This document shows, piece by piece, positions 1,501 through 42,738 of a DNA stretch of 54,970 nucleotides. The DNA is from a virus, in the IMG/VR virus record IMGVR_UViG_3300037264_009246, positions 1 through 54,970 of that record; one strand, given 5' to 3'. Numbering within the stretch: position 1 is the first letter of the stretch; each line of letters begins with the position of its first letter. The notes under the pieces are model-generated. The model made no database searches. It was given only the letters and a program-made list of their open reading frames with translations, and was not told where the DNA came from. The translations under genes and the position numbers were made by a program.

Positions 1501-1509
1501 GGTGACACG

Positions 1510-1923: not shown

Positions 1924-1933
1924 GGAGGTTTAA

Positions 1934-2308
1934 ATGGGCCAAGTAAAGAACTACGACATAAAAACGATGTCTAAGCTCATTGCCACGGCGGTAGCCACAC
2001 TCGGTCTTGGAGCAGTACCGGCAGGGATGAAAAGATACGTCACCCTGGCAAGAGTGAACAACGTTGCAGGTCAGCAGAACGTATTGTACATTGCATCTGC
2101 AGCGAACAGCGCCAACACAAGCACGGTTGCACTTGCAAGCGCAACACAGAAATACTCAGTACAGCTCCCGGCTGACGGCGTTGATCAGTTCCCGAACAGC
2201 GTACCCGATCCAGACCGTCCACTGTTCAGTTTTGCGGCGAGCAGCTACGTAAATATGAAGACCTCAAAAGGCAGTGCGCGGGTCTTCATGCAATACTACG
2301 ATATGTGA
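1934..2308 (+). CDS. Tandem paralogue 3, putative virion protein (124 aa)
   Basis: Third and most divergent copy. It keeps the YDIKTMSK start, PAGMKRYVTLARV, a PLFSFAASSY block equivalent to the FTIAASKW of the others, and a QYYD ending, but is shorter by about 13 residues. TAAGGAGG precedes the ATG and includes the stop of copy 2. A hairpin plus T-run immediately follows the stop, so it probably ends the first structural transcript. Confidence 0.8.
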   Translation: MGQVKNYDIKTMSKLIATAVATLGLGAVPAGMKRYVTLARVNNVAGQQNVLYIASAANSANTSTVALASATQKYSVQLPADGVDQFPNSVPDPDRPLFSFAASSYVNMKTSKGSARVFMQYYDM

Positions 2309-3539: not shown

Positions 3540-3548
3540 GGGAATTTT

Positions 3549-4520
3549 ATGGAATCAGAGAAGATCCCATTTCACAGACCGATGCAGTTACCCGGTGATG
3601 AACTGGAAAAAGTGATAAATAAAATTGATGACTGCATGACAACCGGGATGATATCGAACAAAAAGAACGTCAGAGATCTCGAGCAAACAATAGCAGACCG
3701 ATATGATGTCGGGCACGCTATAGCCACATCATCAGCATCCCAGGGACTCCTGATCGCGTTGCAGGCTTTGTACAGGGTACATCCAGTACCGGCAAATTCT
3801 GTAATAACCCCTGCATTTGCGTGGTACAGCTCAAAGTACGCAATAGAATCAGCAGGGAAAACATGCGTTTTCGTTGATATTGATCCTGACACATGGACAA
3901 TGCAACATGGAAAGTACAGGATGGTTATGCCTGTTCACACTTTCGGTAATGTCTGTGAGATAGAAAGTGACTATAAAATATATGACGGGGCACACAGTCT
4001 TGGATCCAGAATAAAGGATTTTGGTGATGCCACAGTTCTCAGCCTGGCACCAACGAAGATCATAACGAGCATAGAAGGCGGCATGATCTTAACTGACGAT
4101 TTTGATCTGGCTGACAGGATAACAGCAATAAGGGATAAAGTGTCAAGGATGAGTGAAATTCATGCAATATTCGGGCTTGCATACCTGACGCACATCGATG
4201 AAGTGATGAAATTCAAGCAACAGGTATTCAATTATTACAGCAAGAACCTTAAAGGCATATTCCAGAAAACAGACCGGCACAGCAACCACAACACAATAGG
4301 GATGCTCACAGATCTCAAGATACCTGACTGTATTGAAACCAAGAAATATTATGAACCCATGAGTGAAAGCAGGATAGGACTTCTGCAAAATACCAGACTG
4401 GTTTATGACACGATTGTTTGCCTGCCATCATATTTTGACTGCCCGTATGAGCAGATAGTTGGTATTATAAACAACTTCAACAGGGTATATGGCTGCGGTA
4501 CTCCCGATGGAGGTAATTAG
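3549..4520 (+). CDS. DegT/DnrJ/EryC1-type sugar aminotransferase (LegC/PseC-like)
   Basis: 323 aa, PLP-dependent. The family motif around the PLP lysine is visible as LAPTKIITSIEGG, with Lys170 as the expected Schiff-base residue; TSSASQGL near residue 60 is the phosphate-binding loop and DGAHSLG near 146 holds the ring-binding Asp. In the legionaminate route this enzyme aminates the 4-keto sugar produced by the dehydratase encoded at 5241. It is shorter than typical family members (about 370-390 aa), mostly at the C-terminus. Its start is 9 bp after the DUF115 gene stop. Confidence 0.85.
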   Translation: MESEKIPFHRPMQLPGDELEKVINKIDDCMTTGMISNKKNVRDLEQTIADRYDVGHAIATSSASQGLLIALQALYRVHPVPANSVITPAFAWYSSKYAIESAGKTCVFVDIDPDTWTMQHGKYRMVMPVHTFGNVCEIESDYKIYDGAHSLGSRIKDFGDATVLSLAPTKIITSIEGGMILTDDFDLADRITAIRDKVSRMSEIHAIFGLAYLTHIDEVMKFKQQVFNYYSKNLKGIFQKTDRHSNHNTIGMLTDLKIPDCIETKKYYEPMSESRIGLLQNTRLVYDTIVCLPSYFDCPYEQIVGIINNFNRVYGCGTPDGGN

Positions 4521-4521
4521 C

Positions 4522-5244
4522 ATGGTATTCATAGCTGCTGAGATAGGTGTTAATTTCAGGAAAATGAGTGAAGCAAAAAGGATGATTGGTCTTGCTAAAG
4601 ATGCAGGCGCAGACGGGGTAAAGTTCCAGGTGTTTCAGGAAAGTCATATAAAAGGTCATCCAAGGGAAAAAGAGCTTCTTAACTTGATCCATAAACAGCA
4701 GTATTTCCAGTTCCTTAAAAATACGGCTGATGAATGTGGTATTGAGTTTTTCGCAACTCCAATGTACCCTGAAGCTGTGGATATGCTTGAAGCTGTTGGA
4801 GTGAAAAGGTACAAAATACGGTATGCAGACAGATGTAATAATAATTTAATAAATGCCGTACTTAAAACAAACAAGAAAATCTTATTATCATGCGATAAAG
4901 CATATTTAGAGCACTTAATGTATGAAAAAAAGCCAGAAGTGCAATTTAATCCAGCCAGGATACATTATATTTATTGCATACCCAAATACCCACCATCACT
5001 CGAAGAAATAGCATTCCCGGCTGATTTTGGAGATAGTTTATTTAATGGATACAGCAACCATTACCCATCAATCAGCGTACCGCTGGCTGCCACAGCGCGG
5101 GGAGCAAACTACATTGAGGTCCATGTTAAGCAGGATAAATATCCTAAAGACTACAGGCCAATAGACGATGTTGTATCAATCACATTTTCAGAACTCAAAG
5201 AACTTGTCAGATTAACCAGGGAGATTGAAAAGGTGATACTTTGA
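4522..5244 (+). CDS. neuB: NeuB/LegI-type nonulosonic acid synthase, short form
   Basis: 240 aa when started at ATG 4522, which has GGAGGT at 4509-4514; a longer in-frame start at 4489 lies inside the previous gene and lacks a ribosome site. The protein shows the synthase barrel: AAEIGVN at the start, GADGVKFQ near residue 32, EFFATP, a YCIPKYP block equivalent to the family CVSxYP, and GYSNHYPS. It would condense phosphoenolpyruvate with the 2,4-diamino sugar. The usual C-terminal SAF (antifreeze-like) domain of about 60-70 residues is missing and the end of the barrel is compact. Confidence 0.85.
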   Translation: MVFIAAEIGVNFRKMSEAKRMIGLAKDAGADGVKFQVFQESHIKGHPREKELLNLIHKQQYFQFLKNTADECGIEFFATPMYPEAVDMLEAVGVKRYKIRYADRCNNNLINAVLKTNKKILLSCDKAYLEHLMYEKKPEVQFNPARIHYIYCIPKYPPSLEEIAFPADFGDSLFNGYSNHYPSISVPLAATARGANYIEVHVKQDKYPKDYRPIDDVVSITFSELKELVRLTREIEKVIL

Positions 5245-6047
5245 CAACGTTCCTGATCACCGGCGGCGCCGGATCACTCGGCAGGCAGATAGTTCAGAGA
5301 TTACCGAACAGTACTGTGAGGGTACTTGATATTGATGAAGCCGGTTTATCCGATCTTAAAGAAATGTACCCGGATACCAGGACTCTTTATGGGGATATCC
5401 GGGACCTTAGCCGTGTCATGCTGGCAATGAAAGGGGTTGATGTATGCGTTCACACCGCTGCCATGAAGAACATAAACGTGACTGAGTATAACGTTCCCGA
5501 GCTGATAAACACCAACGTAACCGGCACGCAGAATCTCGTATTATCAGCAATCGAACAGGGGGTTAGGCATTTCATATTTGTTAGCAGTGATAAAGCAGTG
5601 CATCCCACTACAGCTTATGGCGCTACAAAGCTCATGGGAGAAAATATCATAAAGTGGGCCGGGAAGATCCAGAATAAAACCAAATTCACGATAATTCGCC
5701 CTGGTAATTTCTGGCATAGTAAGGGTAATGTGTTCGAGGTATGGGAGAAACAGATGAAACAGGGCAAACCGCTTACGCTTACAAACAATATGATGATCCG
5801 TCATTTTATCGAAACCGAAAAAGTTGCTATTATGATTATTGGGCTTGTTGGGGCAACCCAGTTCGGGCATACCACAATTATTCCAGCTATGAAAACATAT
5901 TGTATAGCTGAAGAATTGAAGAAAAGGTATCCCGGAGCTGAGATAACAATCACCGGCAGGAGGGATGGTGAAAAGGATATTGAGAAACTGTGGGCTGACA
6001 GTGAGAAAGCAGTTGATAATGGAGATTTCTGGGAGGTAAAATGGTAG
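5241..6047 (+). CDS. NAD-dependent nucleotide-sugar 4,6-dehydratase (LegB/PseB-like)
   Basis: 268 aa short-chain dehydrogenase. The NAD loop is GGAGSLG at residues 8-14; the catalytic set is SDK at 116-118 with Tyr126 and Lys130 (YxxxK). The spacing SSDKAVHP then YGATK is characteristic of UDP-GlcNAc 4,6-dehydratases. It would perform the first committed step of the nonulosonate route. Translation starts at TTG 5241 with AGGTGA 5 bp upstream, overlapping the stop of neuB by 4 bp (TTGA), so the two are translationally coupled. Confidence 0.85.
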   Translation: MTTFLITGGAGSLGRQIVQRLPNSTVRVLDIDEAGLSDLKEMYPDTRTLYGDIRDLSRVMLAMKGVDVCVHTAAMKNINVTEYNVPELINTNVTGTQNLVLSAIEQGVRHFIFVSSDKAVHPTTAYGATKLMGENIIKWAGKIQNKTKFTIIRPGNFWHSKGNVFEVWEKQMKQGKPLTLTNNMMIRHFIETEKVAIMIIGLVGATQFGHTTIIPAMKTYCIAEELKKRYPGAEITITGRRDGEKDIEKLWADSEKAVDNGDFWEVKW

Positions 6048-6661
6048 AAAGATTTGGTAATGTTCTTGCGATCATCCCGGCACGCAGGGAATCAAAGAGG
6101 CTGCCAGGTAAGAATAAGATGATGTTAAGTGTTGGTGGGCTTCCATTATGGGGAAATACAGTAGATATAGCCCTGAATGCTGGGATTAACAATATCGCGG
6201 TATCAACTGATGATAACGAGATTTTAGATAAGATAGAATTATTATTTCCAAAGTCAAATATTTTAGGATTAAAGAGATCTCCTGAAATGTCTGATGATGA
6301 TGCTTCAACAGAGGACGTAATACGTGAAGTAATGCAGCAGGTAGCACACCAGGAACTTAAATATGACACGATCTGCCTGTTACAGCCCACAAGTCCCACC
6401 CTTCAACCATCAACGCTTAAACATGCCATACACCAATATTATAGCAACAAATATCCCTGTCTTGTAGCTGTAAATCCTGATTTTAAACCCTGTGGGGCAT
6501 TCTATATTTTTAACAGGGATAGTTTTTACCAAAATTCAAATATCTGGATGCCCGGAATGGCTGTATATACAGTTGATGAAAAAGAGTCTGTTGATATTGA
6601 CCATATATGGGATTTCAGGATAGCGGAAGCGGTAATGGATGGACTGGTGATAAAGAAATGA
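6041..6661 (+). CDS. neuA: CMP-nonulosonic acid synthetase (NeuA/LegF-like)
   Basis: 206 aa. The nucleotide-binding signature is seen as PARRESKRLPGKN at residues 13-25, with STDDNEI near 55 and LLQPTSP at 113-119, all standard for acylneuraminate cytidylyltransferases. It would activate the nonulosonic acid with CTP, producing the donor for the DUF115 transferase. GGAGG precedes the ATG and the gene overlaps the dehydratase by 7 bp. Slightly shorter than the bacterial enzyme (about 220-230 aa). Confidence 0.88.
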   Translation: MVERFGNVLAIIPARRESKRLPGKNKMMLSVGGLPLWGNTVDIALNAGINNIAVSTDDNEILDKIELLFPKSNILGLKRSPEMSDDDASTEDVIREVMQQVAHQELKYDTICLLQPTSPTLQPSTLKHAIHQYYSNKYPCLVAVNPDFKPCGAFYIFNRDSFYQNSNIWMPGMAVYTVDEKESVDIDHIWDFRIAEAVMDGLVIKK

Positions 6662-7587
6662 TCGGGATATTATCTTCATGCAGCTCTGAGCAGCATCTTA
6701 TAGAGCCGGTGATCGATGAGCTGAATAAACTTGACATGGATCCCTGGATAATCGGGATACCTCAGAATGACATAACAGGATCTTACAATAAGGTAAACAG
6801 TACATTGAATGACGGCACCGGGTATCCAGATGTTAAATTCATCCTGGCTGTTGCAGACAGGCCTGAGCAGATGGGCGGCGTACTTGCTGCGTTTCATAAC
6901 AGGATCCCGGTAGGACATCTCTATGCCGGTGATCAAAATACTGTAGCCACGTTTGACGATATCCACAGGCACGCAATAACCCTGTATTCACAGATACAGT
7001 TCTGCTCATGTGATGAATCAACTGCAAATGTTCGCAGGATGATGATGGGGGCAGGTCTTGCATCAAACGCGCATACAGTCGGTGCAACACACTTTGACAG
7101 CATTAATCCGGAAGTGATAAAAAACAAGTACCGTGACCGTAAATTCAACTTCCCGAATGAGAAAGGTGGGTTCGTACTGGTATCAATAAATTCAGAAACG
7201 TATGGGGATGATAAAAGGCTGATAGCTGAAGTCCTTGACAAAGCATCTTTCTATAAAAGCCACAAATTCGTTCAGGTCCGGGGAAACGGAGATGACCACG
7301 TAGATAATACTATTTTCACAAGGATCGAGACTGAATCAGTAGATGTGATTTATCTTGACAGGTGCGAGCATGACCTGTATCTCTATCTCATGATGAACTG
7401 CTGTGTGTTCATAACAAATAGCTCTGCCGCGATTTATGAGGCCACACAGCTTCTCCGGGCAGATCAGATCGTTATGGTCGGGTTGAGGAATAAAGGAAGA
7501 ACACCTGTGCCAATTTTTGCTCATGACGGGCAGGCATCAAACAGGATAGCGAATTTAATAAAGGGATTTTTAGATGAAACGCTCTGA
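6658..7587 (+). CDS. neuC: Hydrolysing UDP-sugar 2-epimerase (NeuC/LegG-like)
   Basis: 309 aa from ATG 6658, which overlaps the neuA stop (ATGA) and has GGTGAT upstream; an in-frame ATG at 6607 lies well inside neuA. The UDP-GlcNAc 2-epimerase fold is supported by DRPEQM near residue 70, a PVGHLYAGD block, DDIHRHAITLYS, and a late NSSAAIYEA that matches the family NSGG/E nucleotide loop. It removes UDP while inverting C2, giving the free sugar used by NeuB. It is about 60 residues shorter than typical members. Confidence 0.82.
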   Translation: MIGILSSCSSEQHLIEPVIDELNKLDMDPWIIGIPQNDITGSYNKVNSTLNDGTGYPDVKFILAVADRPEQMGGVLAAFHNRIPVGHLYAGDQNTVATFDDIHRHAITLYSQIQFCSCDESTANVRRMMMGAGLASNAHTVGATHFDSINPEVIKNKYRDRKFNFPNEKGGFVLVSINSETYGDDKRLIAEVLDKASFYKSHKFVQVRGNGDDHVDNTIFTRIETESVDVIYLDRCEHDLYLYLMMNCCVFITNSSAAIYEATQLLRADQIVMVGLRNKGRTPVPIFAHDGQASNRIANLIKGFLDETL

Positions 7588-7972
7588 CCACTGGAAAAAT
7601 AATTGGAAGCAGCCTGTAATAGTGCACATGAAACCTACTGAATGGGGCTGGATTGTTCAATATCCTGACCTTTTCAAGTTAGGCAAATACACTGATATCG
7701 GTTTCGGAACTTATATCAATGCAAGGCATGGTGTAGTTATCGAGGATGATGTGCAGATAGGATCGCACGTTTCAATTTACAGTGAGAACTCAATAGATGA
7801 TACCTGGGGTCTTATCGTATTGAAGAAAGGATGCAAGATCGGATCACACAGCGTCATTCTTCCCGGAGTGGTTATAGGTGAGAACGCTAAAGTTGGTGCT
7901 TTCAGCCTGGTAAAAGAGGATGTACCTGCCGGGGCAACTGCTGTTGGGATACCTGTGAGATTAGTACATTAA
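7574..7972 (+). CDS. Left-handed beta-helix acetyltransferase (NeuD/LegH-like)
   Basis: 132 aa with the imperfect hexapeptide repeats of the trimeric acyltransferase family: IGFGTYIN, VVIEDDVQIGSHVSI, CKIGSHSVILPGVVIGENAKVGAFSLV, ending in the usual PAGATAVGIPVRLV. It would acetylate the 4-amino group of the nonulosonate precursor, completing the set of enzymes for CMP-legionaminic acid. It overlaps the neuC end by 14 bp. Small for the family because the N-terminal domain is reduced to about 30 residues. Confidence 0.85.
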   Translation: MKRSDHWKNNWKQPVIVHMKPTEWGWIVQYPDLFKLGKYTDIGFGTYINARHGVVIEDDVQIGSHVSIYSENSIDDTWGLIVLKKGCKIGSHSVILPGVVIGENAKVGAFSLVKEDVPAGATAVGIPVRLVH

Positions 7973-26941: not shown

Positions 26942-27961
26942 CTATCCATTGCGTATCTCTCCCCACATTTGTTCTATCCCGAGCGCTTCCTGTAAGTTAT
27001 GGCTGTTAGCCCATTTCAGCCAGCCCATTGTACTCGCTATTGATGATTGGTATTGAAGCTCCGTGATCTTGCCTTTATGGAGTAGCTCGGGAAGCGCCTT
27101 CATTCTGCGTCTGACCCTTTTGGTCGTGCTTTTCCTGACTAGAATGTGATTTGGAAAGTGTCTGTATCCTACAAAGTCGATTCCCTGGGTTATTGGGAAC
27201 ACGTTACATTTGCTAAATGTTAATTTCAGCTTTTCAGCGATGTATTCCCGGATTATCTCTGCAAGTTCGCTCAGGTATTTTTTATCCTCATGTATAACTA
27301 AGAAGTCGTCACAGTAGCGGAGATAGTGTCTGATTTTATGCTCATGCTTCAGGTATTGGTCTATCTCGTTCATGTAAAGGTTGCCAAACCACTGGCTTGT
27401 GTAATTGCCAATCGGAACGTTCTTCCCGCCATCCATGCTGTAAATTATATTTCTTATAAGCCATAGAGTATCCTTACATTTTATTTTGCGCTGGATTATT
27501 CCATATAAAATATCATGGTTCATCGAGGGATAGAACTTTGAGATATCCATCTTCAGACAGTAGCCTTCAGCGCCAACTTCTCTTATGAACTGCATCGTCC
27601 TCTGGCTGGCTTTGTGGATTCCTTTACCTTTCCTGCAGGCGTAGGAATCGTGGATGAATAACCCTTCCCATATTGGCTCAAGCACGTTCATTAGCACGTG
27701 CTGAACTATCCTATCTGGATTAAATGGTAGCCTGTAAATTATGCGCTTTTTGGGTTCGTGGATTGTTTTGAGTGTGTATTCTGATGTGGTGAGTGTCTTA
27801 TCTATGAGCGACTTCTGGATTTCTAAAAGATTACTTTCGAGGTTTTTATCAAACTTCTTAATCGTGTCCTGCCAGCTTTTTCCTTTCTTTGCTGCCTTGT
27901 ATGCATTGTGGATATTCTCTATATCAACTAATTTCTCAAAAAGCTTGCCGTGTCGTTTCAT
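26942..27961 (-). CDS. DGR reverse transcriptase (339 aa)
   Basis: 339 aa from ATG 27961, which gives the usual MKRHGKLFEK-type N-terminus of DGR reverse transcriptases; GTG 27988 is the alternative. The catalytic motif is YCDD at 216-219, with the metal Asp139 in KMDISKFYP and the DGR-type IGNYTSQWFGN at 184-194. It copies the template repeat with errors at adenines for transfer into the variable repeat. It lies just after the template in the expected order. No gene for the common Avd accessory protein is recognised nearby. Confidence 0.93.
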   Translation of the reverse strand: MKRHGKLFEKLVDIENIHNAYKAAKKGKSWQDTIKKFDKNLESNLLEIQKSLIDKTLTTSEYTLKTIHEPKKRIIYRLPFNPDRIVQHVLMNVLEPIWEGLFIHDSYACRKGKGIHKASQRTMQFIREVGAEGYCLKMDISKFYPSMNHDILYGIIQRKIKCKDTLWLIRNIIYSMDGGKNVPIGNYTSQWFGNLYMNEIDQYLKHEHKIRHYLRYCDDFLVIHEDKKYLSELAEIIREYIAEKLKLTFSKCNVFPITQGIDFVGYRHFPNHILVRKSTTKRVRRRMKALPELLHKGKITELQYQSSIASTMGWLKWANSHNLQEALGIEQMWGEIRNG

Positions 27962-28108
27962 TGGTGTTTTTTGAAGAGCAATTTTCACTTTCGTTACTAA
28001 CTGCTCTTCATCTCCGTTGTGTATTTTGCTTATCTGGTAAGCAAGGCGGTCAGGTCCAGCCAGGAGTTAGCTACCGCAAGGAGTCTTGCCATTACTATTT
28101 TTCCTGTA

Positions 28109-28223
28109 TCTGCAAGGAAGCGCCTGCTGATATTCGTATTCGCATTCCAGCGATAATTATTCGCATTACGTGACTGCGAACTGCAATTCGTGCCATTATT
28201 CCAATTGCCGCCTGCAAGAAGCT
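28109..28223 (-). repeat. DGR template repeat (115 bp)
   Basis: 115 bp aligning without gaps to 28301-28415. The two differ at 19 positions, and every one is an adenine in this copy on the - strand. It lies between the target gene and the reverse transcriptase and is the non-changing template of the retroelement. An 86-codon open frame runs through it but is probably incidental. Confidence 0.95.
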
Positions 28224-28290
28224 TCCGATGACCTGATAGCCTGCAATATGTTTTCATATTACCTTTAGATTTTTTCGCTCCGTTATCCAT

Positions 28291-29322
28291 TCACAGTGGC
28301 TCCGCAAGGAAGCGCCCGCCGATAGCCGTACCCGCAATCCAGCGATAACTATTCGCACTACGCGACCGCGAACCGCAATCCGCGCCATCATTCCAACCGC
28401 CGCCCGCAAGAAGCTGTGTATTCCCGTAAGAAGTATTCCCAAATGTGTAGAACGAACCTTTTGCACCGGGTAAGTTATACCAGCCTCCAACCGTTCCATC
28501 GTCCAGTCTTGCTGATGGTGTTTTCAGCCATTGCCATAATGCGCCTGCACAGTCTTCACAACCTATGTTGCTTATCATGCGCCTCGCTGCAGTATCAACG
28601 TGCCCACCTGTAGTTACAGGGTCTGCTGAGCCTGTGATGTTCGTTTCTTCGTTGCTGCCTGCGGCGATTGCCTGGAACTCATTATCGTCCAGCAGACATT
28701 TTCCAACCGCTGCGCCATCGTCCACAAAATCCATCCAGTCACGCGTGTCTGATATGGTCGCATTGTAGGCAGAAGCGGTGCTTGCCCCAGTGCCGCTCGC
28801 TAGATATATATCCACCCACTTCTGGATTTCACTCGACCATACCATGCCTCCTGGGTTGCTCCGTGGGCGATGTTTCAGGTCCCATACGCTTCGTGGCAGG
28901 ATCTCATTTGCAAGATACCCGGTCAGGGTATGCCCAGCGATTACGCCCACATTAACACAGAGAGTATGGAATCCACCAATCTTTCTGCTTGTGGCTGCCG
29001 TGAACCCTGTTGGGAATGTGCTTGCTAAACTGATTTTCCCAACAACAGAACCAGCACTTTCACAGAGATATACGTAATAATCTTTTCCATTGCTGATTGC
29101 ACCTGTATCCATGTCTGTCGCAGTCGATAGTGTAATATCCGTATCGAGCAGATACCAGTTGTTATCGATGTTTATCGGTATATTGTTCGAGCCTTTGACG
29201 ACCACCGTGGTCTTACTCGCCCATTCAAGCAACCGGTCGAGCTTGTTGAGAGGAAAGTTTCCGAGAACCGCTCCTGCGATCACGAAATCCGAGACGTCCT
29301 TTGTGATTTTCCTGTTTGCCAT
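28291..29322 (-). CDS. DGR target protein with C-type-lectin-like variable domain (343 aa)
   Basis: 343 aa. The last ~100 residues fit the formylglycine-enzyme/C-lectin fold used by DGR targets, with ALWQWLK, GGWYNLPG, SFYTFG and the final LLAGGGWN...YRW...GGRFLA. Variable positions fall in residues 304-340. The N-terminal 200 residues include a fibre-like beta part. It is preceded by phage-type fibre and assembly genes, so it is probably the virion's host-binding protein. Confidence 0.93.
   Translation of the reverse strand: MANRKITKDVSDFVIAGAVLGNFPLNKLDRLLEWASKTTVVVKGSNNIPINIDNNWYLLDTDITLSTATDMDTGAISNGKDYYVYLCESAGSVVGKISLASTFPTGFTAATSRKIGGFHTLCVNVGVIAGHTLTGYLANEILPRSVWDLKHRPRSNPGGMVWSSEIQKWVDIYLASGTGASTASAYNATISDTRDWMDFVDDGAAVGKCLLDDNEFQAIAAGSNEETNITGSADPVTTGGHVDTAARRMISNIGCEDCAGALWQWLKTPSARLDDGTVGGWYNLPGAKGSFYTFGNTSYGNTQLLAGGGWNDGADCGSRSRSANSYRWIAGTAIGGRFLAEPL
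28301..28415 (-). repeat. DGR variable repeat (115 bp) at the target gene 3' end
   Basis: Relative to the template, 17 A-to-G, 1 A-to-C and 1 A-to-T changes; no other differences. The changes alter 13 amino acids in the last 40 residues of the target protein. Beyond the repeat the two sequences diverge at once, with a non-adenine mismatch at the first base, which marks the 3' edge where initiation signals are expected. Confidence 0.95.
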
Positions 29323-35153: not shown

Positions 35154-35456
35154 TCATCCCTTCCCCTTACCGAACTTGGTATAAAATATCTCCAATCCCT
35201 TAACCAAACTTTTAAGCTCGTCTATTGAATTTTTGACTTCATTTATATTAGAATCCTGCTGATCATAGTACCTTCTGATAACCTCTGAAACACGTTCATT
35301 GCCTGTCTGCTTTAATTTCAGCGACCTGACATAATTCTCGATCTCAACATAATCCTTGACGATCTCAAGCAGTGTTTCACCCGGCGGCCTGCCGTTGCCG
35401 CGCTTCTCAATTATCTCCAATAATTCCAGCGGTATCTTTACATTCTTACTTGTCAT
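35154..35456 (-). CDS. RHH-like protein with coiled coil (100 aa)
   Basis: 100 aa. The first 35 residues (KNVKIPLELLEIIEKRGNGRPPGETLLEIVKDY) look like a ribbon-helix-helix domain; the rest is a long helix likely to be a coiled coil. CTGGAGGAA precedes the start as at 21982. A transcription regulator is likely. Confidence 0.6.
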   Translation of the reverse strand: MTSKNVKIPLELLEIIEKRGNGRPPGETLLEIVKDYVEIENYVRSLKLKQTGNERVSEVIRRYYDQQDSNINEVKNSIDELKSLVKGLEIFYTKFGKGKG

Positions 35457-35938: not shown

Positions 35939-36379
35939 TCAACTCCATAATTCTTCTGCCAATCTGACTAAAGGATAGGGATGTTTCTTTCCAGCCCAGC
36001 GTTCACCAACTGTAAGACTGGGTCCTGCCTTCTCAGCTTTTCGCCATTCCTGTAAAAATGATGGCATGTAGCCTTTGCGAATAATTATATCAAATACCCT
36101 ATCTCCATAGATATTTTGTATGTAAAACGGCACTGGATGAAGATACGGCGATTCTTCTACCCGGATTCCGTATTTATCACTGAGCCTGCTGAGAAGCTGC
36201 CTTATTTCTATTTTTGTCTGGTCTGATGGATGACCATATATTATCAAATCAACATCTGATTTTCCGGGTCTGAACCTGTTCGGGTCAGTTATTGAGCCAA
36301 AAAATTCTATTCTCTCTATGCCTTCTAATTTTCTTGCCTGATCTTTAAAATCATTCATGAATGATATTGTATCAGCCAT
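35939..36379 (-). CDS. Nucleotidyltransferase-fold protein (146 aa)
   Basis: 146 aa. FFGSITDPNRF then KSDVDLIIYG gives the GS...DxD signature of the MNT/KNT nucleotidyltransferase fold. In archaea this fold is found in antitoxins of HEPN/MNT pairs and in sugar or antibiotic transferases; no HEPN partner is visible beside it. It directly follows the polyprenyl synthase gene and may be cotranscribed. Confidence 0.75.
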   Translation of the reverse strand: MADTISFMNDFKDQARKLEGIERIEFFGSITDPNRFRPGKSDVDLIIYGHPSDQTKIEIRQLLSRLSDKYGIRVEESPYLHPVPFYIQNIYGDRVFDIIIRKGYMPSFLQEWRKAEKAGPSLTVGERWAGKKHPYPLVRLAEELWS

Positions 36380-36380
36380 T

Positions 36381-37364
36381 TTATTTCTCCTTGATCATCA
36401 TATCTGCAATTTCACCCGGAGCAGACAGAAGCAGCTCCTCACATTCAAGATATGGTATTTTCGTACAGATTATATTCGTCCTGGCTTCAAGGATCTCCTT
36501 ATCAAGTATTTCCCTGAGAGTTTTCTGTGCCCCTTCCTGTGACCATAATTCCTTAGCCTTCGATAGATCAACAGCCCTGTTCTTGACATCTACGAAGAAC
36601 TCCTTAACAAGCCTGTCAATACCCATACACTTGAAAAGCAGCATCTCAGAACCGAAACCACTGGTCTTTTTACCATCGATAAGTATTTGTAGATCCGCAA
36701 TATCATCCGCGATCTGCATGGCATTACCAACGTGAAGCCCGTAATTCGAGAAATGTACCATCTCATCCTTATACGCGCAGAAATCGTCCAGGCTGTTGCA
36801 GGTCATACACCTTGATGCCATGTGGCCCCACAGAGAGGCAAGACTGAACAGCCGCCCGGTTTTTTGTGATATTACTGCATCGTATAGCATGGTTGCAGGA
36901 AGATCCGGATTAGAGAACAGTTCCTTAACCACTCCCTTGACCATGCTCCGCTGCGTCTGAGCCAGGGAGCCAACGAACCGTTCACCATGTCGTGATGCAA
37001 TGTCATAAGGCATGGATAGAACCCCTATTGTGTCAAGCATGGCCTTCTTATGACCTTTACTGAGGTGAATGGTCGGCAGTCCCCTGCGTTCCGTATCTTC
37101 ATCGAGCATATCATCCAGGATGAGTGACGCGCTGTGAGCCAGTTCAACCGCGCAGGCTAAATTAAGTGCTGCGTCCCTGTTCTGTTTTTTATCGGACATT
37201 GAATCAAAGACCAGGAGTAAAAGACCGGCACGCAGACGCTTACCTTTTAAAAGCATTGGTGTTATGTCAGGATCCTTCAGCTTCTCCCGCGCGATCTTGT
37301 CTATGCGTTCATCGACCTGGGGTTTTATTTCATTAAGGTATCCCTGGAATGTTCTATTGCTCAT
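36381..37364 (-). CDS. Polyprenyl (geranylgeranyl-type) diphosphate synthase (327 aa)
   Basis: 327 aa with a complete active site: GKRLR at 41-45, the first Asp-rich motif DDMLDED at 84-90 followed by RRGLPT, KTG at 168-170, and the second Asp-rich motif DDIAD at 220-224. It would add isopentenyl units to make a C15-C20 or longer chain. The residue before the first motif (Leu/Ile rather than bulky aromatic near 80) does not by itself decide chain length. It overlaps the upstream 87-aa gene (ATGA) and belongs to the operon with UbiA-like, chorismate-lyase-like and reductase genes. Confidence 0.88.
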   Translation of the reverse strand: MSNRTFQGYLNEIKPQVDERIDKIAREKLKDPDITPMLLKGKRLRAGLLLLVFDSMSDKKQNRDAALNLACAVELAHSASLILDDMLDEDTERRGLPTIHLSKGHKKAMLDTIGVLSMPYDIASRHGERFVGSLAQTQRSMVKGVVKELFSNPDLPATMLYDAVISQKTGRLFSLASLWGHMASRCMTCNSLDDFCAYKDEMVHFSNYGLHVGNAMQIADDIADLQILIDGKKTSGFGSEMLLFKCMGIDRLVKEFFVDVKNRAVDLSKAKELWSQEGAQKTLREILDKEILEARTNIICTKIPYLECEELLLSAPGEIADMMIKEK

Positions 37365-37624
37365 TTCTTTGAACCTCCTATAGGGAAATTACGCCCTGTA
37401 AACATCTTCTCATATCTCCTGATTACCGGGATAATTGGTACTGGAATGCGTTTCTTAGGTTCTTTCCAGGCAAACATCTGTCTTGCTTTTTCCTCACGCA
37501 CATACGCTTCAAATTCATCAAATAAATGGTGACGTGGGGGGTTGTAATAGGTAACTGTGTTTGCAGTTGCGGTGCCTATATCTAAAAATATCCCTCGTAT
37601 CTTATATGTCCCTGAATATGTCAT
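37361..37624 (-). CDS. Small basic protein between reductase and prenyl synthase (87 aa)
   Basis: 87 aa from ATG 37624, overlapping the reductase stop (TAATG); AAGGAGGG lies upstream. Strand-rich start, then a basic and proline-containing end (KKRIPVPIIPVIRRYEKMF). It overlaps the next gene by 4 bp, so it is translated with the pathway enzymes and may be a structural or targeting partner. Confidence 0.6.
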   Translation of the reverse strand: MTYSGTYKIRGIFLDIGTATANTVTYYNPPRHHLFDEFEAYVREEKARQMFAWKEPKKRIPVPIIPVIRRYEKMFTGRNFPIGGSKK

Positions 37625-38601
37625 TATATTCTTGCCCTCCTTAAGAGCCTGAACGCATCCCATAGACCTATTTTCATATCCATACGCCGTGTATTACGCT
37701 GTAATACAAGCGCACTGCCTAAGCCTATCGGTTTTCCCCGTATGAACCTTTCAACTACCTCACGCTCCTTTTCCATCCATGCAAATTCACGCAGTATAGC
37801 ACGCTCATAATCAACAGCAGAGTAAAGGTTTTCCAGTTGAAACAATGCGCTTCTCATGCCGTGTATGATCCCGTCACCGAGCATTGGAGCAACGCAACCT
37901 ATCGCCTCTCCGATGCCCCAGACATTTTCATGCACGAAGGGTCTGCTGCCCCTGGGCGCGGTCTGGCGCACTTTACTGTAGCAGGCACACTTTACACCTT
38001 GTCCGGAAGAATATGGTTGTATCCAGTTTATATCCTTCAATATCTTAATCGGGTCAGTAACAAGACTGCCTGCCCCTATATGAAATTCCGTATCAGATAG
38101 TGGAAAGCTCCACGCATAACCTATCTTGCTGACCTTGATACGCATTTCAGGCAGCAGTTCATCACTGGTCATGCGATACTGATAGCACGGTGATATCAGG
38201 TCATTGGGTATCTTCGGTAAAAATGCACGCGCTACACCCGTAGCGTCAATAACCCTGTCATAATTGAACCTTAACCGTTCAGACGGTTCATATTTTTTTA
38301 TTTCAGCATCACCAAGCAGGTCTTTTATCAGCTTCGGTTTATCGATTGTCAGCATGTACGCTTTTATTTTTATTTCATCGAACCAGATGTGATCAAAAAG
38401 GCGAAGGATATAATCATTGGGGTTCAGCCCTGCCTTTTCAACAAGTTCTTGAAAACCCTTTGTCGTTCCCCAGGCGCAGGGATTAATACCGCAGTTTGTT
38501 TTATGTTCCAGGTCAAATATCGTCACGTCAAACCCATTATTTTTAAGCAGCCTGTACATATACGCGCCAGATATCCCCGCACCTGCGATTGCGATTCTCA
38601 T
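37624..38601 (-). CDS. Geranylgeranyl-reductase-like flavoprotein (325 aa)
   Basis: 325 aa. FAD loop GAGISG at 7-12; a cysteine block NCGINPCAWG at 36-45 in the position of the conserved cysteines of archaeal geranylgeranyl reductases; and the second FAD motif VWGIGEAIGCVAPMLGDGI near 225-245 followed by GMRSA. It would reduce isoprenoid double bonds on lipids or on the prenyl tail of a quinone-like compound. It is about 60 residues shorter than the host lipid reductases. Confidence 0.85.
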   Translation of the reverse strand: MRIAIAGAGISGAYMYRLLKNNGFDVTIFDLEHKTNCGINPCAWGTTKGFQELVEKAGLNPNDYILRLFDHIWFDEIKIKAYMLTIDKPKLIKDLLGDAEIKKYEPSERLRFNYDRVIDATGVARAFLPKIPNDLISPCYQYRMTSDELLPEMRIKVSKIGYAWSFPLSDTEFHIGAGSLVTDPIKILKDINWIQPYSSGQGVKCACYSKVRQTAPRGSRPFVHENVWGIGEAIGCVAPMLGDGIIHGMRSALFQLENLYSAVDYERAILREFAWMEKEREVVERFIRGKPIGLGSALVLQRNTRRMDMKIGLWDAFRLLRRARI

Positions 38602-38999
38602 TCTACTTTCACATCCCCTTCCTCAATTGCCATGACTATCACCCTGTATTTTTTATTCTCATTAAGTGTTATAGGACTGATGCCTGGCTTTCCGGCCTGA
38701 TATCCAAGCGTCATACCCCAGTACTGGATAACCAAATCAGAGCGTGGGCCGTGACCTACAATATTTTCATAAACACGGATATTTCCCTTTGTCTTTTCAA
38801 TGTAATCAAGTAAAGTTGGATCCTTAATCTCCAAACCGTCTATTGCCTTTAGAATGCTTGAATACACCCCATTTATTCGCTCTACAGCCTTATCTCCAAG
38901 GCGGGCACACTCTTCCTGGATGAATTTCTTTTCATCTTCTACAGTTTGCCATATCCGTTCTTGAATTATTTTTACGATCTTACCATTATCTTCAGTCAT
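38598..38999 (-). CDS. Hypothetical protein in the prenyl operon (133 aa)
   Basis: 133 aa from ATG 38999. Helical first half (KIVKIIQERIWQTVEDEKKFIQEECARLG), beta-like second half. It overlaps the reductase gene by 4 bp. No family recognised; cotranscription with the pathway genes is the only clue. Confidence 0.6.
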   Translation of the reverse strand: MTEDNGKIVKIIQERIWQTVEDEKKFIQEECARLGDKAVERINGVYSSILKAIDGLEIKDPTLLDYIEKTKGNIRVYENIVGHGPRSDLVIQYWGMTLGYQAGKPGISPITLNENKKYRVIVMAIEEGDVKVE

Positions 39000-39000
39000 T

Positions 39001-39453
39001 TTACTTACCATCTCCTAACAATTTAAAATTAATGTCCTTACCCTCTGCTACCTGTTTCAGTATCAAGTCCCCGACCTTAACCTCCCTGCCGTCCGGGAGC
39101 CTGTAAACAATATCATCCAGGAACTCTTTTTCAAATGTCTTGACACCGTATGCCACCGCTTCCAGCTTTGATTTTACATACCAGTACATAACCCGCATAC
39201 TCTGCTTGTAATTAATTCCCTGTGGACTGTTTTTAGGTCTGATGATAGGAGCATCTATCTGAACCCCTACCTTCTTTCGGGTCCCGTTGATATTAGCTTC
39301 AATAATAAAGGCAAGCCTTGGTAGATCATCCCTGAATACTATCCACTGGATGCCCTCAGCTCCATACTCAAGAAGCAACTGCTGGATATCATTCTGTGAT
39401 TTAATAACGTCTATTTCTGTCCTGTCGTAAGGCGGTTTTTTATTGATGATCAT
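39001..39453 (-). CDS. Phage-type hypothetical protein (150 aa)
   Basis: 150 aa. The motif series YGAEGIQWIVF, then KVGVQI, then RVMYWYVKSKLEAVAYGVKTFEKEFL, then LPDGREVKVGDLI matches a conserved phage protein family of unknown function. It shows that the prenyl operon has been interleaved with typical phage genes. Confidence 0.7.
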   Translation of the reverse strand: MIINKKPPYDRTEIDVIKSQNDIQQLLLEYGAEGIQWIVFRDDLPRLAFIIEANINGTRKKVGVQIDAPIIRPKNSPQGINYKQSMRVMYWYVKSKLEAVAYGVKTFEKEFLDDIVYRLPDGREVKVGDLILKQVAEGKDINFKLLGDGK

Positions 39454-39620
39454 TTAACTTCCTTTAACAGCTTGCTCGTTTCTTTTGATATTAAATCTGT
39501 TACGTTGTGAAGGTGAAAAAGAGGATTTATTCCATGACGAGTTGCTATTTCCTCATGAGAAAATATCAATGTAACCTCAAAATCCCCATTCTGTTTTATT
39601 GTACATTCTTTTATTTCCAT
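39450..39620 (-). CDS. Small protein after the UbiA-like gene (56 aa)
   Basis: 56 aa; TGAGGTAAAAAT precedes the ATG and the stop overlaps the next start (ATGA). Beta strands first (CTIKQNGDFEVTLIFSHEEI), then a helical end. No family recognised. Confidence 0.55.
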   Translation of the reverse strand: MEIKECTIKQNGDFEVTLIFSHEEIATRHGINPLFHLHNVTDLISKETSKLLKEVK

Positions 39621-39624
39621 ATTT

Positions 39625-40305
39625 TTACCTCAAAATAAAAATAACAGCAAGCAGGTAACTCAATAAGCATAGTAGTCTCAAAGCCATCTCAGGTTTATCT
39701 ATAACAGAAGGCTCCTGCAGTAGATACACATTCTTTCTCCATTTCCTGACGTACCGTGACAGCGTTATCTCAATTCCTGAAATGAGAGCTGCTACTACAG
39801 CCCATGGTAAAAACTCCGGATTAAGTGTAAGTGTATTTACGTAATACCCTGCCATCACCGGCACGAACCCAAAGGATACCGCGAACCAGAAATCAGAATG
39901 GAAGAATCCTTTTGCGAATTTTGCATACGGGTACGCCACAACGAAAAACGTCTGCAGGGGAATTATCCACAGCAGATGCCAGGCAGCCAGTTTTACCATC
40001 CAGATTACACCTATCATCACCGCTGCGCTCACGGCAGCCACACCCAGCGATCTCAGTTCCCAGGGCGTCAGATATTTTACATAACTGCTACCCTGACCAG
40101 GGAGCTGATCAAAAGCATGAGCTGCTATTCCAAGACCAAGGAAGTAAGCTATCATGATCCATGCGAACACGTCCCACCGCTGCACACCTGCTATCCCGAA
40201 CCCAACAGCAAGGAAGCTCAGGCTCATGAAAGTGTATGGCAAATGAAGGATAGTCCAGAACTCAGCTAATTTAGATCCTTCTGCTGAATACCAGGTTTTT
40301 CTCAT
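39625..40305 (-). CDS. UbiA-family prenyltransferase-like membrane protein (226 aa)
   Basis: 226 aa from ATG 40305 (GAGGATTTGAG upstream). About six hydrophobic spans. The first Asp-motif region reads AAHAFDQLPG (62-71), like the AHALDELxGRP version of atypical UbiA proteins; the second is reduced to EITLSRYVRKW. UbiA enzymes attach prenyl chains to aromatic rings or to glycerol phosphate. The short length and diverged motifs leave the substrate open. It lies between a chorismate-lyase-like gene and the reductase, which favours an aromatic acceptor. Confidence 0.75.
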   Translation of the reverse strand: MRKTWYSAEGSKLAEFWTILHLPYTFMSLSFLAVGFGIAGVQRWDVFAWIMIAYFLGLGIAAHAFDQLPGQGSSYVKYLTPWELRSLGVAAVSAAVMIGVIWMVKLAAWHLLWIIPLQTFFVVAYPYAKFAKGFFHSDFWFAVSFGFVPVMAGYYVNTLTLNPEFLPWAVVAALISGIEITLSRYVRKWRKNVYLLQEPSVIDKPEMALRLLCLLSYLLAVIFILR

Positions 40306-40306
40306 C

Positions 40307-40489
40307 TCAAATCCTCTGCGGCAGCATCGGTCTTGGCGGCACGTTGAATTTCTTACACCCATACTGGCACATCACGTTTATTGATTCGCCGCCCCTGGGT
40401 CCCGCAAGCAGCTTCCCGCCACACACCGGGCATTTGCCATTCCAGATCTGTTCTGCCTCTTCCTTCGATACTTCCTTCAATTCGCTCAT
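40307..40489 (-). CDS. Zinc ribbon protein (60 aa)
   Basis: 60 aa with CPVCGGK near residue 20 and CQYGCK near 41, a compact zinc ribbon of phage type. It overlaps the upstream gene by 4 bp and its stop is 1 bp from the UbiA-like start. Confidence 0.6.
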   Translation of the reverse strand: MSELKEVSKEEAEQIWNGKCPVCGGKLLAGPRGGESINVMCQYGCKKFNVPPRPMLPQRI

Positions 40490-41001
40490 ATAATTTTCCC
40501 GGCTTTATTTATTGCGTCCCTGGGGAACGTCTCTGTTATGATTAGTTCAACATCACCTGTAATGCGGTAATTCCTTGCTATGACGTTCTCATCTGAATAC
40601 AGGCCGAACACATGCCTTTCCTGTTTCAAGCCTGTGGATTTTATTATTTGCCCGATCCCCATACTACGTTCTCGTATAGCATTCAGGAACCGTTCCGGAT
40701 TGTTTTTATACGGGATGATCGACTCGGCAAGACACGCAGTAACTTCGGTCCCAGGGAAGATCATATCCGTTAGAGGATAAACAGCTACAAGTTTTGTCCA
40801 CCTGAGAATACCTATATCTGGCAATTCCTGCTGTGATAATACCTCAACCTTAACCTGCACACCGAACAGGACCGATAAAAGCGTTTGTACCGTGCCATCA
40901 TGACAGAGTATAACCCTCTCAAGCGGGTTTATTTCTTTAGGTAATTTGTCAATAAGCTGCTGTATGTTCTTTTCGGTTGGCTGTTCCGATATTCCTATCA
41001 T
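40486..41001 (-). CDS. Chorismate-lyase-like (UbiC/DUF98 family) protein (171 aa)
   Basis: 171 aa. RVILCHDGTVQTLLSVLFGVQVKVEVLSQ near residues 28-56, then RWTKLVAVYP, then EVTACLAESIIPYKN, then SMGIGQIIKSTGLKQERHVFGLY follows the pattern of the DUF98/UbiC family. Members convert chorismate to 4-hydroxybenzoate and pyruvate; the Arg/Glu active-site pair is plausible but not proven here. It follows the DUF5371-type regulator with a 4-bp overlap. With UbiA-like and prenyl-synthase genes it would supply the aromatic head group. Confidence 0.7.
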   Translation of the reverse strand: MIGISEQPTEKNIQQLIDKLPKEINPLERVILCHDGTVQTLLSVLFGVQVKVEVLSQQELPDIGILRWTKLVAVYPLTDMIFPGTEVTACLAESIIPYKNNPERFLNAIRERSMGIGQIIKSTGLKQERHVFGLYSDENVIARNYRITGDVELIITETFPRDAINKAGKII

Positions 41002-41177
41002 TTTTTGGCCTTCGTATTTTTGACCTTTGGTTTTTCAGACTTCACATTTTCACATTCAAGATAATGATCAATCGCCTTACTGAGCGCGTCTTTAGTTGCA
41101 TGTTCGCCGGTGCATTCTTTCAATTCACTTAACCTTTCTTCCTCTATAATAGTCTGAACGTGTACGAGTTTTGCCAT
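40998..41177 (-). CDS. DUF5371-type RHH regulator of the prenyl operon (59 aa)
   Basis: 59 aa from ATG 41177 with GGTGATATA upstream. LVHVQTIIEEERLSELKE, CTGEHATKDALSKAIDHYLECE is the pattern of the archaeal DUF5371 / ribbon-helix-helix family found in methanogens. It is the first gene of the operon and a palindrome lies between promoter and start, so it probably represses its own operon. Confidence 0.75.
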   Translation of the reverse strand: MAKLVHVQTIIEEERLSELKECTGEHATKDALSKAIDHYLECENVKSEKPKVKNTKAKK

Positions 41178-41190
41178 TATATCACCGTAC

Positions 41191-41208
41191 ATGATAATGC
41201 ATAATCAT
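41191..41208. promoter_or_regulatory. Imperfect palindromic operator of the prenyl operon
   Basis: atgat-a-atgcat-a-atcat at 41191-41208: symmetric except for one base pair per half. It lies between the TATA box (41242-41252) and the first gene start (41177), in the position of a repressor site. Confidence 0.5.
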
Positions 41209-41241
41209 ATAAAAAAGTTACCATTTGTTTTATTTACACAA

Positions 41242-41252
41242 AGTATATATAA
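41242..41252 (-). promoter_or_regulatory. TATA box of the prenyl-aromatic operon
   Basis: agtatatataa read from the + strand (ttatatatact on -) about 65 bp upstream of ATG 41177, with an expected start near 41217. It is the only good TATA box upstream of the run of overlapping genes. Confidence 0.6.
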
Positions 41253-41271: not shown

Positions 41272-41336
41272 TTGTGTTGTGGGCAGGTTAATCTTTTTTT
41301 ACCAAACACTAACCCCCACTCCCCCCTGCCCCAACA
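41272..41336. other. Inverted repeat around a G-rich tract after the integrase
   Basis: gtgttgtgggcagg (41272-41285) pairs with cctgccccaacac (41324-41336) with one bulged base. Between them the - strand has several G runs (gggggagtggggg), which could fold as a quadruplex in the RNA or DNA. It starts 10 bp after the integrase stop and may terminate that transcript. Confidence 0.4.
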
Positions 41337-41346
41337 CTCCTATCCA

Positions 41347-42738
41347 TCACCTGCGCCCTTTTTCTATTTGCTCCATTCTTCTCGTCAGCTCATCGATTAC
41401 ATTCATTAACTGCGCGACACCTGGTACCTGCGCTCCGGGTATGGCTTCTTCAAACTCCTTCTGTATCCTTTCAATTCTCGATTTATGCTCAGGTATGATA
41501 TAAATTTCCCAATCCTTGATTGTTTTAAGAGCTTTTTTCTCATCCATATCCGCTGCGTATGTATCAAGCGCAGTTTTATCATTTGTCCATCCACCCATAG
41601 CCGAAAGGGTTTTTAAGCCGCCTATTGCGTATATTGCTGCCGACCATGTGTGTCTCAGACCATACAGGATATAATCTTTTTCAGATTTAATTAAACCCTT
41701 TGATTTCAGGGCCTCCCGCCTGCGTCTTATAAATTCGTCATAAGAGCCAAGTGCTGCAAAATCCTTAAAAATATACCCTCTGCCTGTCATATTATTTTCA
41801 CGGCACCATTTCAATAAGTCATCGCGCAGACCTGCCGATATATAAACAAAAGTTGGCGGGAATTTTTTAGCTACCTCTTCTCCTATTTTCTTTTTTTCTC
41901 TATCGTATAACTTCAGGGATGCAATCGTGTAGAATGTCCGGTCAAGTGCGTCTGTTACTGGTTTGTCCTCAATATCACCACAGGTCATATAATATGCCTG
42001 TATAGGTCTGAGTCCTGTCTGTAACATCAGCCTGGAAAACAGTGTATGGTATGGTTTGGCTCCAAAAAGTATTGAATTAAAAAACTCATTTAATTCCTGT
42101 TCATTATATAATTCAACAGCACCCGGACTTTTTGGCATTTCAACTTGTAATCCTGTGAATGGGTTGCTCATAACGTATCGTTCAATATCCAGGAATTTCC
42201 CGAAACCCATAAGACTCGATCTGATCTGCGCTCGAGAGAACTCACTATCGCTTACAGCAATAGCGAACGCTTTTCCATCGCTTGATGTTATACCGTACCG
42301 TAATTTTGCACCTGGGACCGGGCGTTCCAGGTCTTTCATAGTTATTTTTTTATTCTCCCGCTCTGATAACCACTGAACGAACATTGCAGGATACCTTACA
42401 GCAATATCGTATGATTGCCAGCTTTTGTATTTCTTAAGAGATACTACATAATGTTGAAGTATGGCTTTTTTCACCTGTTCATCCGCGTTTATCTCCTTTA
42501 CCGCTTCTGACATTATTTTATAATAATCATCCTTTATTTTAGGTATTATTTGTAATTTTATTCGTGCGTTTGTGTAGAGTGATTTCCACTTTGGGCCAAC
42601 TAAAATAGGTCTCTGGATTGGGCCAGCGGGTCCACCAACTTTAGAATAACCCATCCTTGCACCCCTGAAAAAATATTCACCCGGTCCGCGTCCTTTTCCT
42701 TCCGGATCGGTTTCATAATACTTAGGTTGAGAAACCAT
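41347..42738 (-). CDS. Tyrosine recombinase / integrase (463 aa)
   Basis: 463 aa; AAGGAGAT precedes the ATG. Catalytic residues: Arg244 in TGLRPIQA, the LRHTW block with Arg362 and His363, Trp384 in GGWTND in the place of the second His, and Tyr394 in LDTYAA. The N-terminal ~130 residues would bind the core site and residues 160-220 the arms. The C-terminal extension is helical. It is the main candidate for integration into the host chromosome. Confidence 0.85.
   Translation of the reverse strand: MVSQPKYYETDPEGKGRGPGEYFFRGARMGYSKVGGPAGPIQRPILVGPKWKSLYTNARIKLQIIPKIKDDYYKIMSEAVKEINADEQVKKAILQHYVVSLKKYKSWQSYDIAVRYPAMFVQWLSERENKKITMKDLERPVPGAKLRYGITSSDGKAFAIAVSDSEFSRAQIRSSLMGFGKFLDIERYVMSNPFTGLQVEMPKSPGAVELYNEQELNEFFNSILFGAKPYHTLFSRLMLQTGLRPIQAYYMTCGDIEDKPVTDALDRTFYTIASLKLYDREKKKIGEEVAKKFPPTFVYISAGLRDDLLKWCRENNMTGRGYIFKDFAALGSYDEFIRRRREALKSKGLIKSEKDYILYGLRHTWSAAIYAIGGLKTLSAMGGWTNDKTALDTYAADMDEKKALKTIKDWEIYIIPEHKSRIERIQKEFEEAIPGAQVPGVAQLMNVIDELTRRMEQIEKGRR

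What the first reader, a model, noticed from the sequence alone, without database searches (positions are those of the whole stretch)
36381..41252. Prenyl-aromatic (quinone- or methanophenazine-like) pathway on a mobile element
One operon with overlapping genes encodes a chorismate-lyase-like protein (40486), an atypical UbiA (39625), a geranylgeranyl-reductase-like flavoprotein (37624) and a polyprenyl synthase with both Asp motifs (36381), under a DUF5371-type regulator with its own palindrome. In order these would make 4-hydroxybenzoate, a C20-type chain, join them and saturate the tail. That is the scheme expected for a membrane electron carrier such as methanophenazine or a quinone. I know of no virus or plasmid carrying such a set. 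Alternatives are lipid remodelling of an envelope or a prenylated signal.
Basis: partly seen in the sequence, partly recalled or inferred. Interest (0 to 1): 0.92.

Follow-up and report, generated by a model that had tools for sequence, protein, structure and literature searches.

The report
Host prenyl-lipid genes on archaeal virus-like element
A 55-kb circular virus-like element of methane-oxidising archaea carries a set of prenyl-lipid genes shared with a host chromosomal operon, plus a chorismate-lyase-like gene of its own type, and two related elements carry similar genes, which suggests that such elements alter their host's membrane electron carriers or lipids.

Summary
The genes are real. 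One minus-strand operon (41177 to about 35680) encodes a chorismate-lyase homologue, a UbiA-like membrane protein, a geranylgeranyl-reductase-family flavoprotein and a polyprenyl diphosphate synthase. The window is an IMG/VR record with a 127-bp terminal repeat, so probably a complete circle. Of 186 genomes in the order, five Ca. Methanoperedens-type genomes hold a related chromosomal operon (UbiA-like, reductase, second UbiA-like, synthase) at 71-74, 55-60 and 51-61% identity. In one it directly follows a cbb3-type oxidase. The chorismate-lyase homologue is not from that operon: its closest relative (42%) lies on a fragment of a related element, next to a PF01040 UbiA gene. A third, 52-kb related element carries two tandem UbiA-type genes; its backbone is collinear with the window, and the window's prenyl genes occupy a slot that holds only small genes there. 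Methanophenazine is unlikely: the host genomes carry menaquinone (Mqn) genes and published enrichments lack methanophenazine. A quinone-like or tail-modified respiratory lipid is the best guess, but the UbiA-like protein lacks the canonical Asp motifs, fold predictions for it failed, and no product is known.

The parts
40998..41177 (-). DUF5371 protein, first gene of the operon (ORF can start at 41192; 41177 more likely)
   Evidence: PF17341 E 3.2e-18; homologues on L092 and on the related element L189; start choice by eye
40486..41001 (-). Chorismate-lyase-like (Rv2949c/UbiC superfamily) protein, element-type lineage
   Evidence: E 2.4e-9 with HMM of host PF01947-type proteins, hhalign 97%; 42% to L140 element copy; tree
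40307..40489 (-). 60-aa Cys-rich (zinc-ribbon-like) protein
   Evidence: ORF and weak Pfam matches only
39625..40305 (-). UbiA-like membrane protein, 226 aa (start corrected)
   Evidence: 71-74% to chromosomal relatives; relatives match PF01040 up to 1.4e-6; fold models poor
39450..39620 (-). small gene of unknown function
   Evidence: ORF
39001..39453 (-). gene of a viral family (phrog_17260), probably element backbone
   Evidence: E 1.1e-9; weak match to L189 8086-8574
38598..39011 (-). unknown gene with a homologue on the related element
   Evidence: 40% over 93 aa to L194 7517-7780
37624..38601 (-). Geranylgeranyl-reductase-family flavoprotein, 325 aa
   Evidence: TIGR02032 E 1.7e-14; 55-60% to chromosomal operon copies; YAWSFP at residue 162
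37361..37624 (-). small unknown gene at the position of the second UbiA-like gene of the chromosomal operon
36381..37364 (-). trans-polyprenyl diphosphate synthase, probably long chain
   Evidence: PF00348 E 2.6e-29; best PDB match 3ipi; 51-61% to chromosomal copies; tree
35939..36379 (-). nucleotidyltransferase-like protein, same strand, next gene
   Evidence: Polbeta E 0.0025, below cut-off
35154..35456 (-). backbone gene bordering the insert
   Evidence: 39% homologue on L189 at 7545-7820, near DUF5371
41278..41331 (.). palindromic repeat dispersed in host-lineage genomes
41347..42738 (-). tyrosine integrase (backbone)
   Evidence: phrog_1 E 1.4e-13; 42% on L189

Best explanation
The operon is metabolic cargo inserted between conserved backbone genes of a circular virus or plasmid of Methanosarcinales, most likely of Ca. 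Methanoperedens. The UbiA-like, reductase and synthase genes share a common origin with a host accessory operon. The chorismate-lyase-like gene belongs to an element lineage that also pairs with a UbiA gene elsewhere. Inferred working: the synthase makes a long trans-prenyl chain (C25 or more), the UbiA-like protein joins it to an acceptor, either 4-hydroxybenzoate made from chorismate by the element's own lyase or a host aromatic, and the reductase saturates part of the chain. This gives a quinone-like or tail-modified respiratory lipid in the host membrane. Shown: gene identities, linkage, cargo position, kinship with the host operon, recurrence of UbiA-type genes on two sibling elements. 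Inferred: enzyme activities, substrates, product, benefit.
For: Chromosomal operon in five genomes; host type by McrA: best PDB hits 9QQT/9QR1, which are Methanoperedens enzymes (PMC12413448), plus MqnA/D-family genes. Synthase tree puts the window within the five-row operon clade. Related element fragment with lyase and PF01040 UbiA adjacent; third element with two UbiA-type genes. Collinear backbone with the window's cargo absent from that slot. In G435 the operon starts 19 bp after a gene that follows a fused cbb3-type oxidase; in G430 it lies near CcmE. Purifying selection. A distant UbiA-like relative lies beside a methyltransferase-like gene and genes that read by eye as UbiD/UbiX/AcnX.
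Against: The UbiA-like protein lacks both canonical Asp-rich motifs, and its fold was not confirmed. The lyase-like protein has Glu where its relatives have Arg or Lys at a conserved place, and its Arg76 match depends on gap placement. The chromosomal operon has no lyase gene and has a second UbiA-like gene that the element lacks. No ring-modifying genes are present. The oxidase link is one genome of five.
Confidence: 0.5

Rival explanations
1. The module remodels archaeal ether lipids or a virion membrane: prenyl chain, UbiA-type transfer to a glycerol-phosphate head, and saturation, as in the archaeal phospholipid pathway.
For: Synthase, UbiA-type protein and geranylgeranyl-reductase family are the same enzyme kinds used for archaeol; the chromosomal operon has no aromatic-making gene, and G363 has a patatin-like lipase next to it.
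Against: The chorismate-lyase homologue pairs with UbiA-type genes on two elements; the synthase resembles a C25 rather than a C20 enzyme (inference); no glycerol-phosphate prenyl transferase gene is seen in the operon; no capsid or membrane protein proves a virion.
Confidence: 0.22
2. A methanophenazine pathway, as the first reader proposed as one option.
For: Best NCBIfam and PDB matches of the synthase are the Methanosarcina geranylfarnesyl synthase.
Against: Far below that family's cut-off (74.9 of 600 bits); window and operon synthases form their own clade; hosts have menaquinone genes and enrichments lack methanophenazine (PMC5244752); 4-hydroxybenzoate is not, to my knowledge, a phenazine precursor.
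Confidence: 0.05
3. A prenyl carrier or prenylated sugar for surface glycan synthesis, linked to the element's own nonulosonic-acid gene cluster at 2430-7972.
For: Both the window and the 52-kb sibling carry NeuB, aminotransferase, epimerase and cytidylyltransferase genes.
Against: Archaeal glycan carriers are made by cis-prenyltransferases (established knowledge), and this synthase is of the trans type; the two clusters are far apart in the window.
Confidence: 0.1
4. The chorismate-lyase-like protein acts in host methanopterin or another 4-hydroxybenzoate use, or has another ligand, and is unrelated to the prenyl genes.
For: Host chromosomal homologues are single, unlinked to prenyl genes and the element copies differ at a conserved Arg/Lys position.
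Against: Two elements place it in a run with a UbiA-type gene.
Confidence: 0.13

Closest known systems
Chromosomal UbiA-like/reductase/UbiA-like/synthase operon of Methanoperedens-type genomes (found here: L092, L111, L112, L113, L114)
   Same: Same three genes, order and strand, 51-74% identity
   Different: Element lacks the second UbiA-like gene and adds a chorismate-lyase homologue and small element genes
Bacterial UbiC-UbiA entry to ubiquinone
   Same: Chorismate-lyase homologue next to UbiA-type genes
   Different: UbiA-like protein atypical; no ring-modifying genes; archaeal host with menaquinone genes
Methanosarcina geranylfarnesyl diphosphate synthase (3ipi; NF040627)
   Same: Closest solved and curated relative of the synthase
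   Different: 34% identity over the aligned part, far below the family cut-off
Archaeal digeranylgeranylglyceryl-phosphate pathway
   Same: Uses a UbiA-type enzyme and a geranylgeranyl reductase
   Different: C20 chains and glycerol-phosphate acceptor; no such acceptor enzyme here
Borgs and large Methanoperedens plasmids
   Same: Extrachromosomal elements of the same host group that carry host-type metabolic genes (PMC9605863, PMC9674854)
   Different: The two papers searched mention no UbiA, prenyl or quinone genes; this element is 55 kb with a diversity-generating retroelement and integrase

Membership tests
trans-polyprenyl diphosphate synthase (PF00348) | Pfam cut-off and two DDxxD motifs | tested here: met
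   102.6 bits against 27; motifs at residues 84 and 220
geranylgeranyl reductase family | family score cut-off (TIGR02032) | tested here: not met
   54.2 bits against 158.8, E 1.7e-14
geranylgeranyl reductase family | FAD GxGxxG and YxWxFP motifs | tested here: met
   IAGAGISGAY and YAWSFP
UbiA prenyltransferase (PF01040) | Pfam cut-off for the window protein | tested here: not met
   no match; two of six relatives match, best E 1.4e-6, under the cut-off
UbiA prenyltransferase (PF01040) | two Asp-rich motifs | tested here: not met
   only one invariant Asp in the first region, none in the second
UbiA prenyltransferase (PF01040) | UbiA fold | tested here: inconclusive
   models with pLDDT 48.6 and 57.7; Foldseek gave nothing
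chorismate lyase (PF01947) | homology to the family | tested here: met
   E 2.4e-9 with HMM of host members, hhalign 97%, although its own Pfam score (13.1) is under the cut-off of 22
chorismate lyase (PF01947) | product-binding Arg76 and Glu155 of UbiC (PMC7879144) | tested here: inconclusive
   Glu kept (ITETFP); Arg kept only under one gap placement; a nearby conserved Arg/Lys is Glu in both element copies
methanophenazine pathway | host uses methanophenazine | tested here: not met
   MqnA/D-family genes in all six operon or remnant genomes; PMC5244752 reports no methanophenazine in enrichments
methanophenazine pathway | GFPS_Meth equivalog cut-off | tested here: not met
   74.9 bits against 600
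quinone-type prenyl aromatic | prenylated aromatic product | not testable with these tools
   needs lipid analysis
virus | capsid, portal or terminase genes | tested here: inconclusive
   none recognised among the PHROGs and Pfam searches made, but not every ORF was scanned

The most novel reading that the evidence does not exclude
A family of mobile elements of methane-oxidising archaea repeatedly acquires prenyltransferase modules in order to rebuild the host's respiratory lipid pool, making a quinone-like carrier that the host alone does not make.
Probability: 0.25. Interest if true: 0.88.

Novelty: new variant of a known kind. Interest (0 to 1): 0.74.

Why it matters
Viruses and plasmids are known to carry host-derived metabolic genes, but I found no report of one with a prenyl-chain, prenyl-transfer and chain-saturation set, and here three related elements each carry UbiA-type genes. 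If the product is a respiratory lipid, these elements would act directly on electron flow in archaea that consume methane. The same search also uncovered an accessory operon in Methanoperedens-type chromosomes that I have not seen described, once placed right behind a cbb3-type oxidase.

Tried and rejected
Single-protein scans of viral contigs with the lyase, UbiA-like, synthase and Cdc6 proteins, and scans with alignments of the lyase, a backbone protein and the RadC protein, found no viral relatives. A scan with the UbiA-like alignment gave three weak viral hits (41% over 46 residues) that were not pursued. Plasmid and phage collections gave only ordinary bacterial synthases or chance hits. 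Two fold predictions of the UbiA-like protein were too poor to use; the structure search gave only chance hits. hhalign of the UbiA-like family to host canonical UbiA proteins was not significant; to the second UbiA-like family it was suggestive only. Methanosarcina geranylfarnesyl synthase loci hold no homologues of the other operon enzymes. A 36-bp match at 48419-48454 to two host-order genomes was considered as a CRISPR spacer and rejected, as no repeats surround it. The genera of G429 and G360 could not be named.
Full report
What is there. The window is an IMG/VR record whose first and last 127 bases are identical, so it is probably a complete circle. It has an Orc1/Cdc6, an MCM-type helicase, a ParA-like ATPase and a reverse transcriptase with an Mtd-like protein, a clamp loader and an integrase. 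No capsid, portal or terminase gene was recognised in the searches I made, so 'virus' is the collection's label, not my result. The finding lies in a tightly packed minus-strand operon from DUF5371 (start near 41177) to at least 35939. Neighbouring genes overlap or nearly touch.

The enzymes. The synthase at 36381 is secure, with both Asp motifs. Its best curated and solved relatives are the Methanosarcina geranylfarnesyl synthase family and 3ipi. The residues four and five places before the first motif are Ser and Ala, which by established rules for these enzymes favours long chains; that is inference. The flavoprotein at 37624 belongs with the geranylgeranyl reductases (TIGR02032 E 1.7e-14) and has the FAD and YxWxFP motifs. 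The protein at 40486 is a chorismate-lyase homologue: an HMM of 13 host proteins of that family finds it with E 2.4e-9 and hhalign gives 97%. The Glu that binds 4-hydroxybenzoate in UbiC (PMC7879144) is kept; the Arg76 match depends on gap placement; a second conserved Arg/Lys is Glu in both element copies. The protein at 39625 begins at 40305. It has no Pfam match itself, but two of six family members match PF01040 at up to 1.4e-6, below the cut-off. It lacks the canonical Asp-rich motifs, and two fold predictions were too weak to settle its fold. It is best called UbiA-like.

Where the set comes from. A search of 186 genomes of the order found the UbiA-like gene in five genomes plus a truncated remnant in a sixth. 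In four of the five it stands in the order UbiA-like, reductase, second UbiA-like, synthase; in the fifth (G452, L113) the synthase was not found. Identities to the window are 71-74% for UbiA-like, 55-60% for reductase and 51-61% for synthase. Third codon positions differ about two to three times as often as first and second, so the proteins are under selection. The synthase tree groups the window with this operon, apart from the methanogen geranylfarnesyl synthases. The genomes are Methanoperedens-type: the McrA of G363 matches 9QQT and 9QR1 best, which PMC12413448 assigns to Ca. Methanoperedens, and all six carry two MqnA/D-family genes that two Methanosarcina genomes lack. Reports give the menaquinone futalosine pathway for this family and no methanophenazine in enrichments (PMC7327174, PMC5244752). 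One of these genomes (G363) also has a menaquinone-type UbiA and glycerolipid-type UbiA genes of its own, so the operon is an extra pathway. In G435 it begins 19 bp after a small gene behind a 906-aa fused cbb3-type oxidase; in G430 it lies near CcmE and a hybrid-cluster protein. In the sixth genome most of it is deleted, so it is dispensable.

Cargo on a family of elements. The lyase-like gene is not in the chromosomal operon; host lyase-family genes are elsewhere and mostly 26-31% identical. Its nearest relative, 42%, is on a 7.7-kb contig of G429 that also has homologues of the window's 52213, ParA, 51083 and RadC proteins, so it is part of a related element. There the lyase gene is followed at once by a PF01040 UbiA gene (E 1.5e-15), apparently cut short (210 aa) in front of an IscB-type gene. 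A 51.9-kb contig of G360 is a second related element: clamp loader 68%, MCM 44%, integrase 42%, RadC 57%, Cdc6, the surface-sugar genes and more. It carries two tandem UbiA-type genes, one over the Pfam cut-off (4.8e-29) and one only by eye. The run 35157, DUF5371, integrase, 602-aa protein, RadC, 47326, Cdc6 is collinear in both. In G360 the gap between the 35157 and DUF5371 homologues holds two small genes, while in the window it holds the whole biosynthetic set. The prenyl genes are therefore cargo, and all three elements of this kind that I could find carry UbiA-type genes, at different sites.

How it most likely works. The synthase makes the chain, a UbiA-type protein transfers it, and the reductase saturates it. 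The lyase homologue, twice found with UbiA-type genes, points to a 4-hydroxybenzoate-like acceptor; the oxidase neighbour points to respiration. I therefore favour a quinone-like or tail-modified respiratory lipid, at about even odds. The main doubts are the degenerate UbiA-like protein, the altered lyase site, the missing second UbiA-like gene and the absence of ring-modifying genes. Ether-lipid or virion-membrane remodelling is the main rival. Methanophenazine is unlikely.

The palindrome. The inverted repeat at 41278-41331 folds better than shuffles (z -2.8), but similar ~50-bp palindromes occur in about 33 genomes of the order, all within one block of the list that holds most of the Methanoperedens-type genomes. 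It is a dispersed repeat and a further hint at the host, not a private operator.

Novelty. I found no paper in the library that reports such a set on an archaeal virus or plasmid; the library is partial. Host-derived cargo on elements is a known kind; this cargo, and its recurrence in one element family, is new to my knowledge.

Noticed in passing
window 26942-29322: Reverse transcriptase (RVT_1) next to an Mtd-like protein (PF21916): a diversity-generating retroelement on an archaeal element.
   Followed up: no
window 2430-7972; L193 10131-18284: Cluster of MptE/Maf-like, DegT aminotransferase, NeuB, epimerase, cytidylyltransferase and UDP-GlcNAc 2-epimerase genes (nonulosonic-acid type sugar), conserved in the 52-kb sibling (NeuB 64%).
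   Followed up: partly
window 1084-2308; L193 6369-8506: Three tandem paralogous genes of about 130 aa, present as about five copies in the sibling; possibly structural.
   Followed up: no
L112 5970-9147: 906-aa fusion of COX1, FixO and c-type domains (cbb3-type oxidase in one chain) directly upstream of the chromosomal prenyl operon in a Methanoperedens-type genome.
   Followed up: partly
L092 136-1083: Patatin-like phospholipase gene next to the chromosomal prenyl operon.
   Followed up: no
L115 9799-10394: Deletion remnant of the operon: truncated UbiA-like gene followed by the end of the synthase gene.
   Followed up: partly
L189 16483-19050: Subtilase gene of the sibling element interrupted by an intein with endonuclease-like domains.
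   Followed up: no
L140 3491-7553: IscB-type (RRXRR plus HNH) gene and, by eye, a TnpB-like gene beside the lyase-UbiA pair; the window RadC C-terminal domain occurs twice on this contig.
   Followed up: no
L093 9100-14101: Distant UbiA-like homologue beside a methyltransferase-like gene and genes that read by eye as AcnX, UbiD and UbiX of archaeal isoprenoid synthesis.
   Followed up: partly
window 48419-48454: 36-bp G-rich stretch just downstream of the Cdc6 gene is 94-97% identical to places in two host-order genomes, not in a CRISPR array; maybe a replication-origin motif or dispersed repeat.
   Followed up: partly
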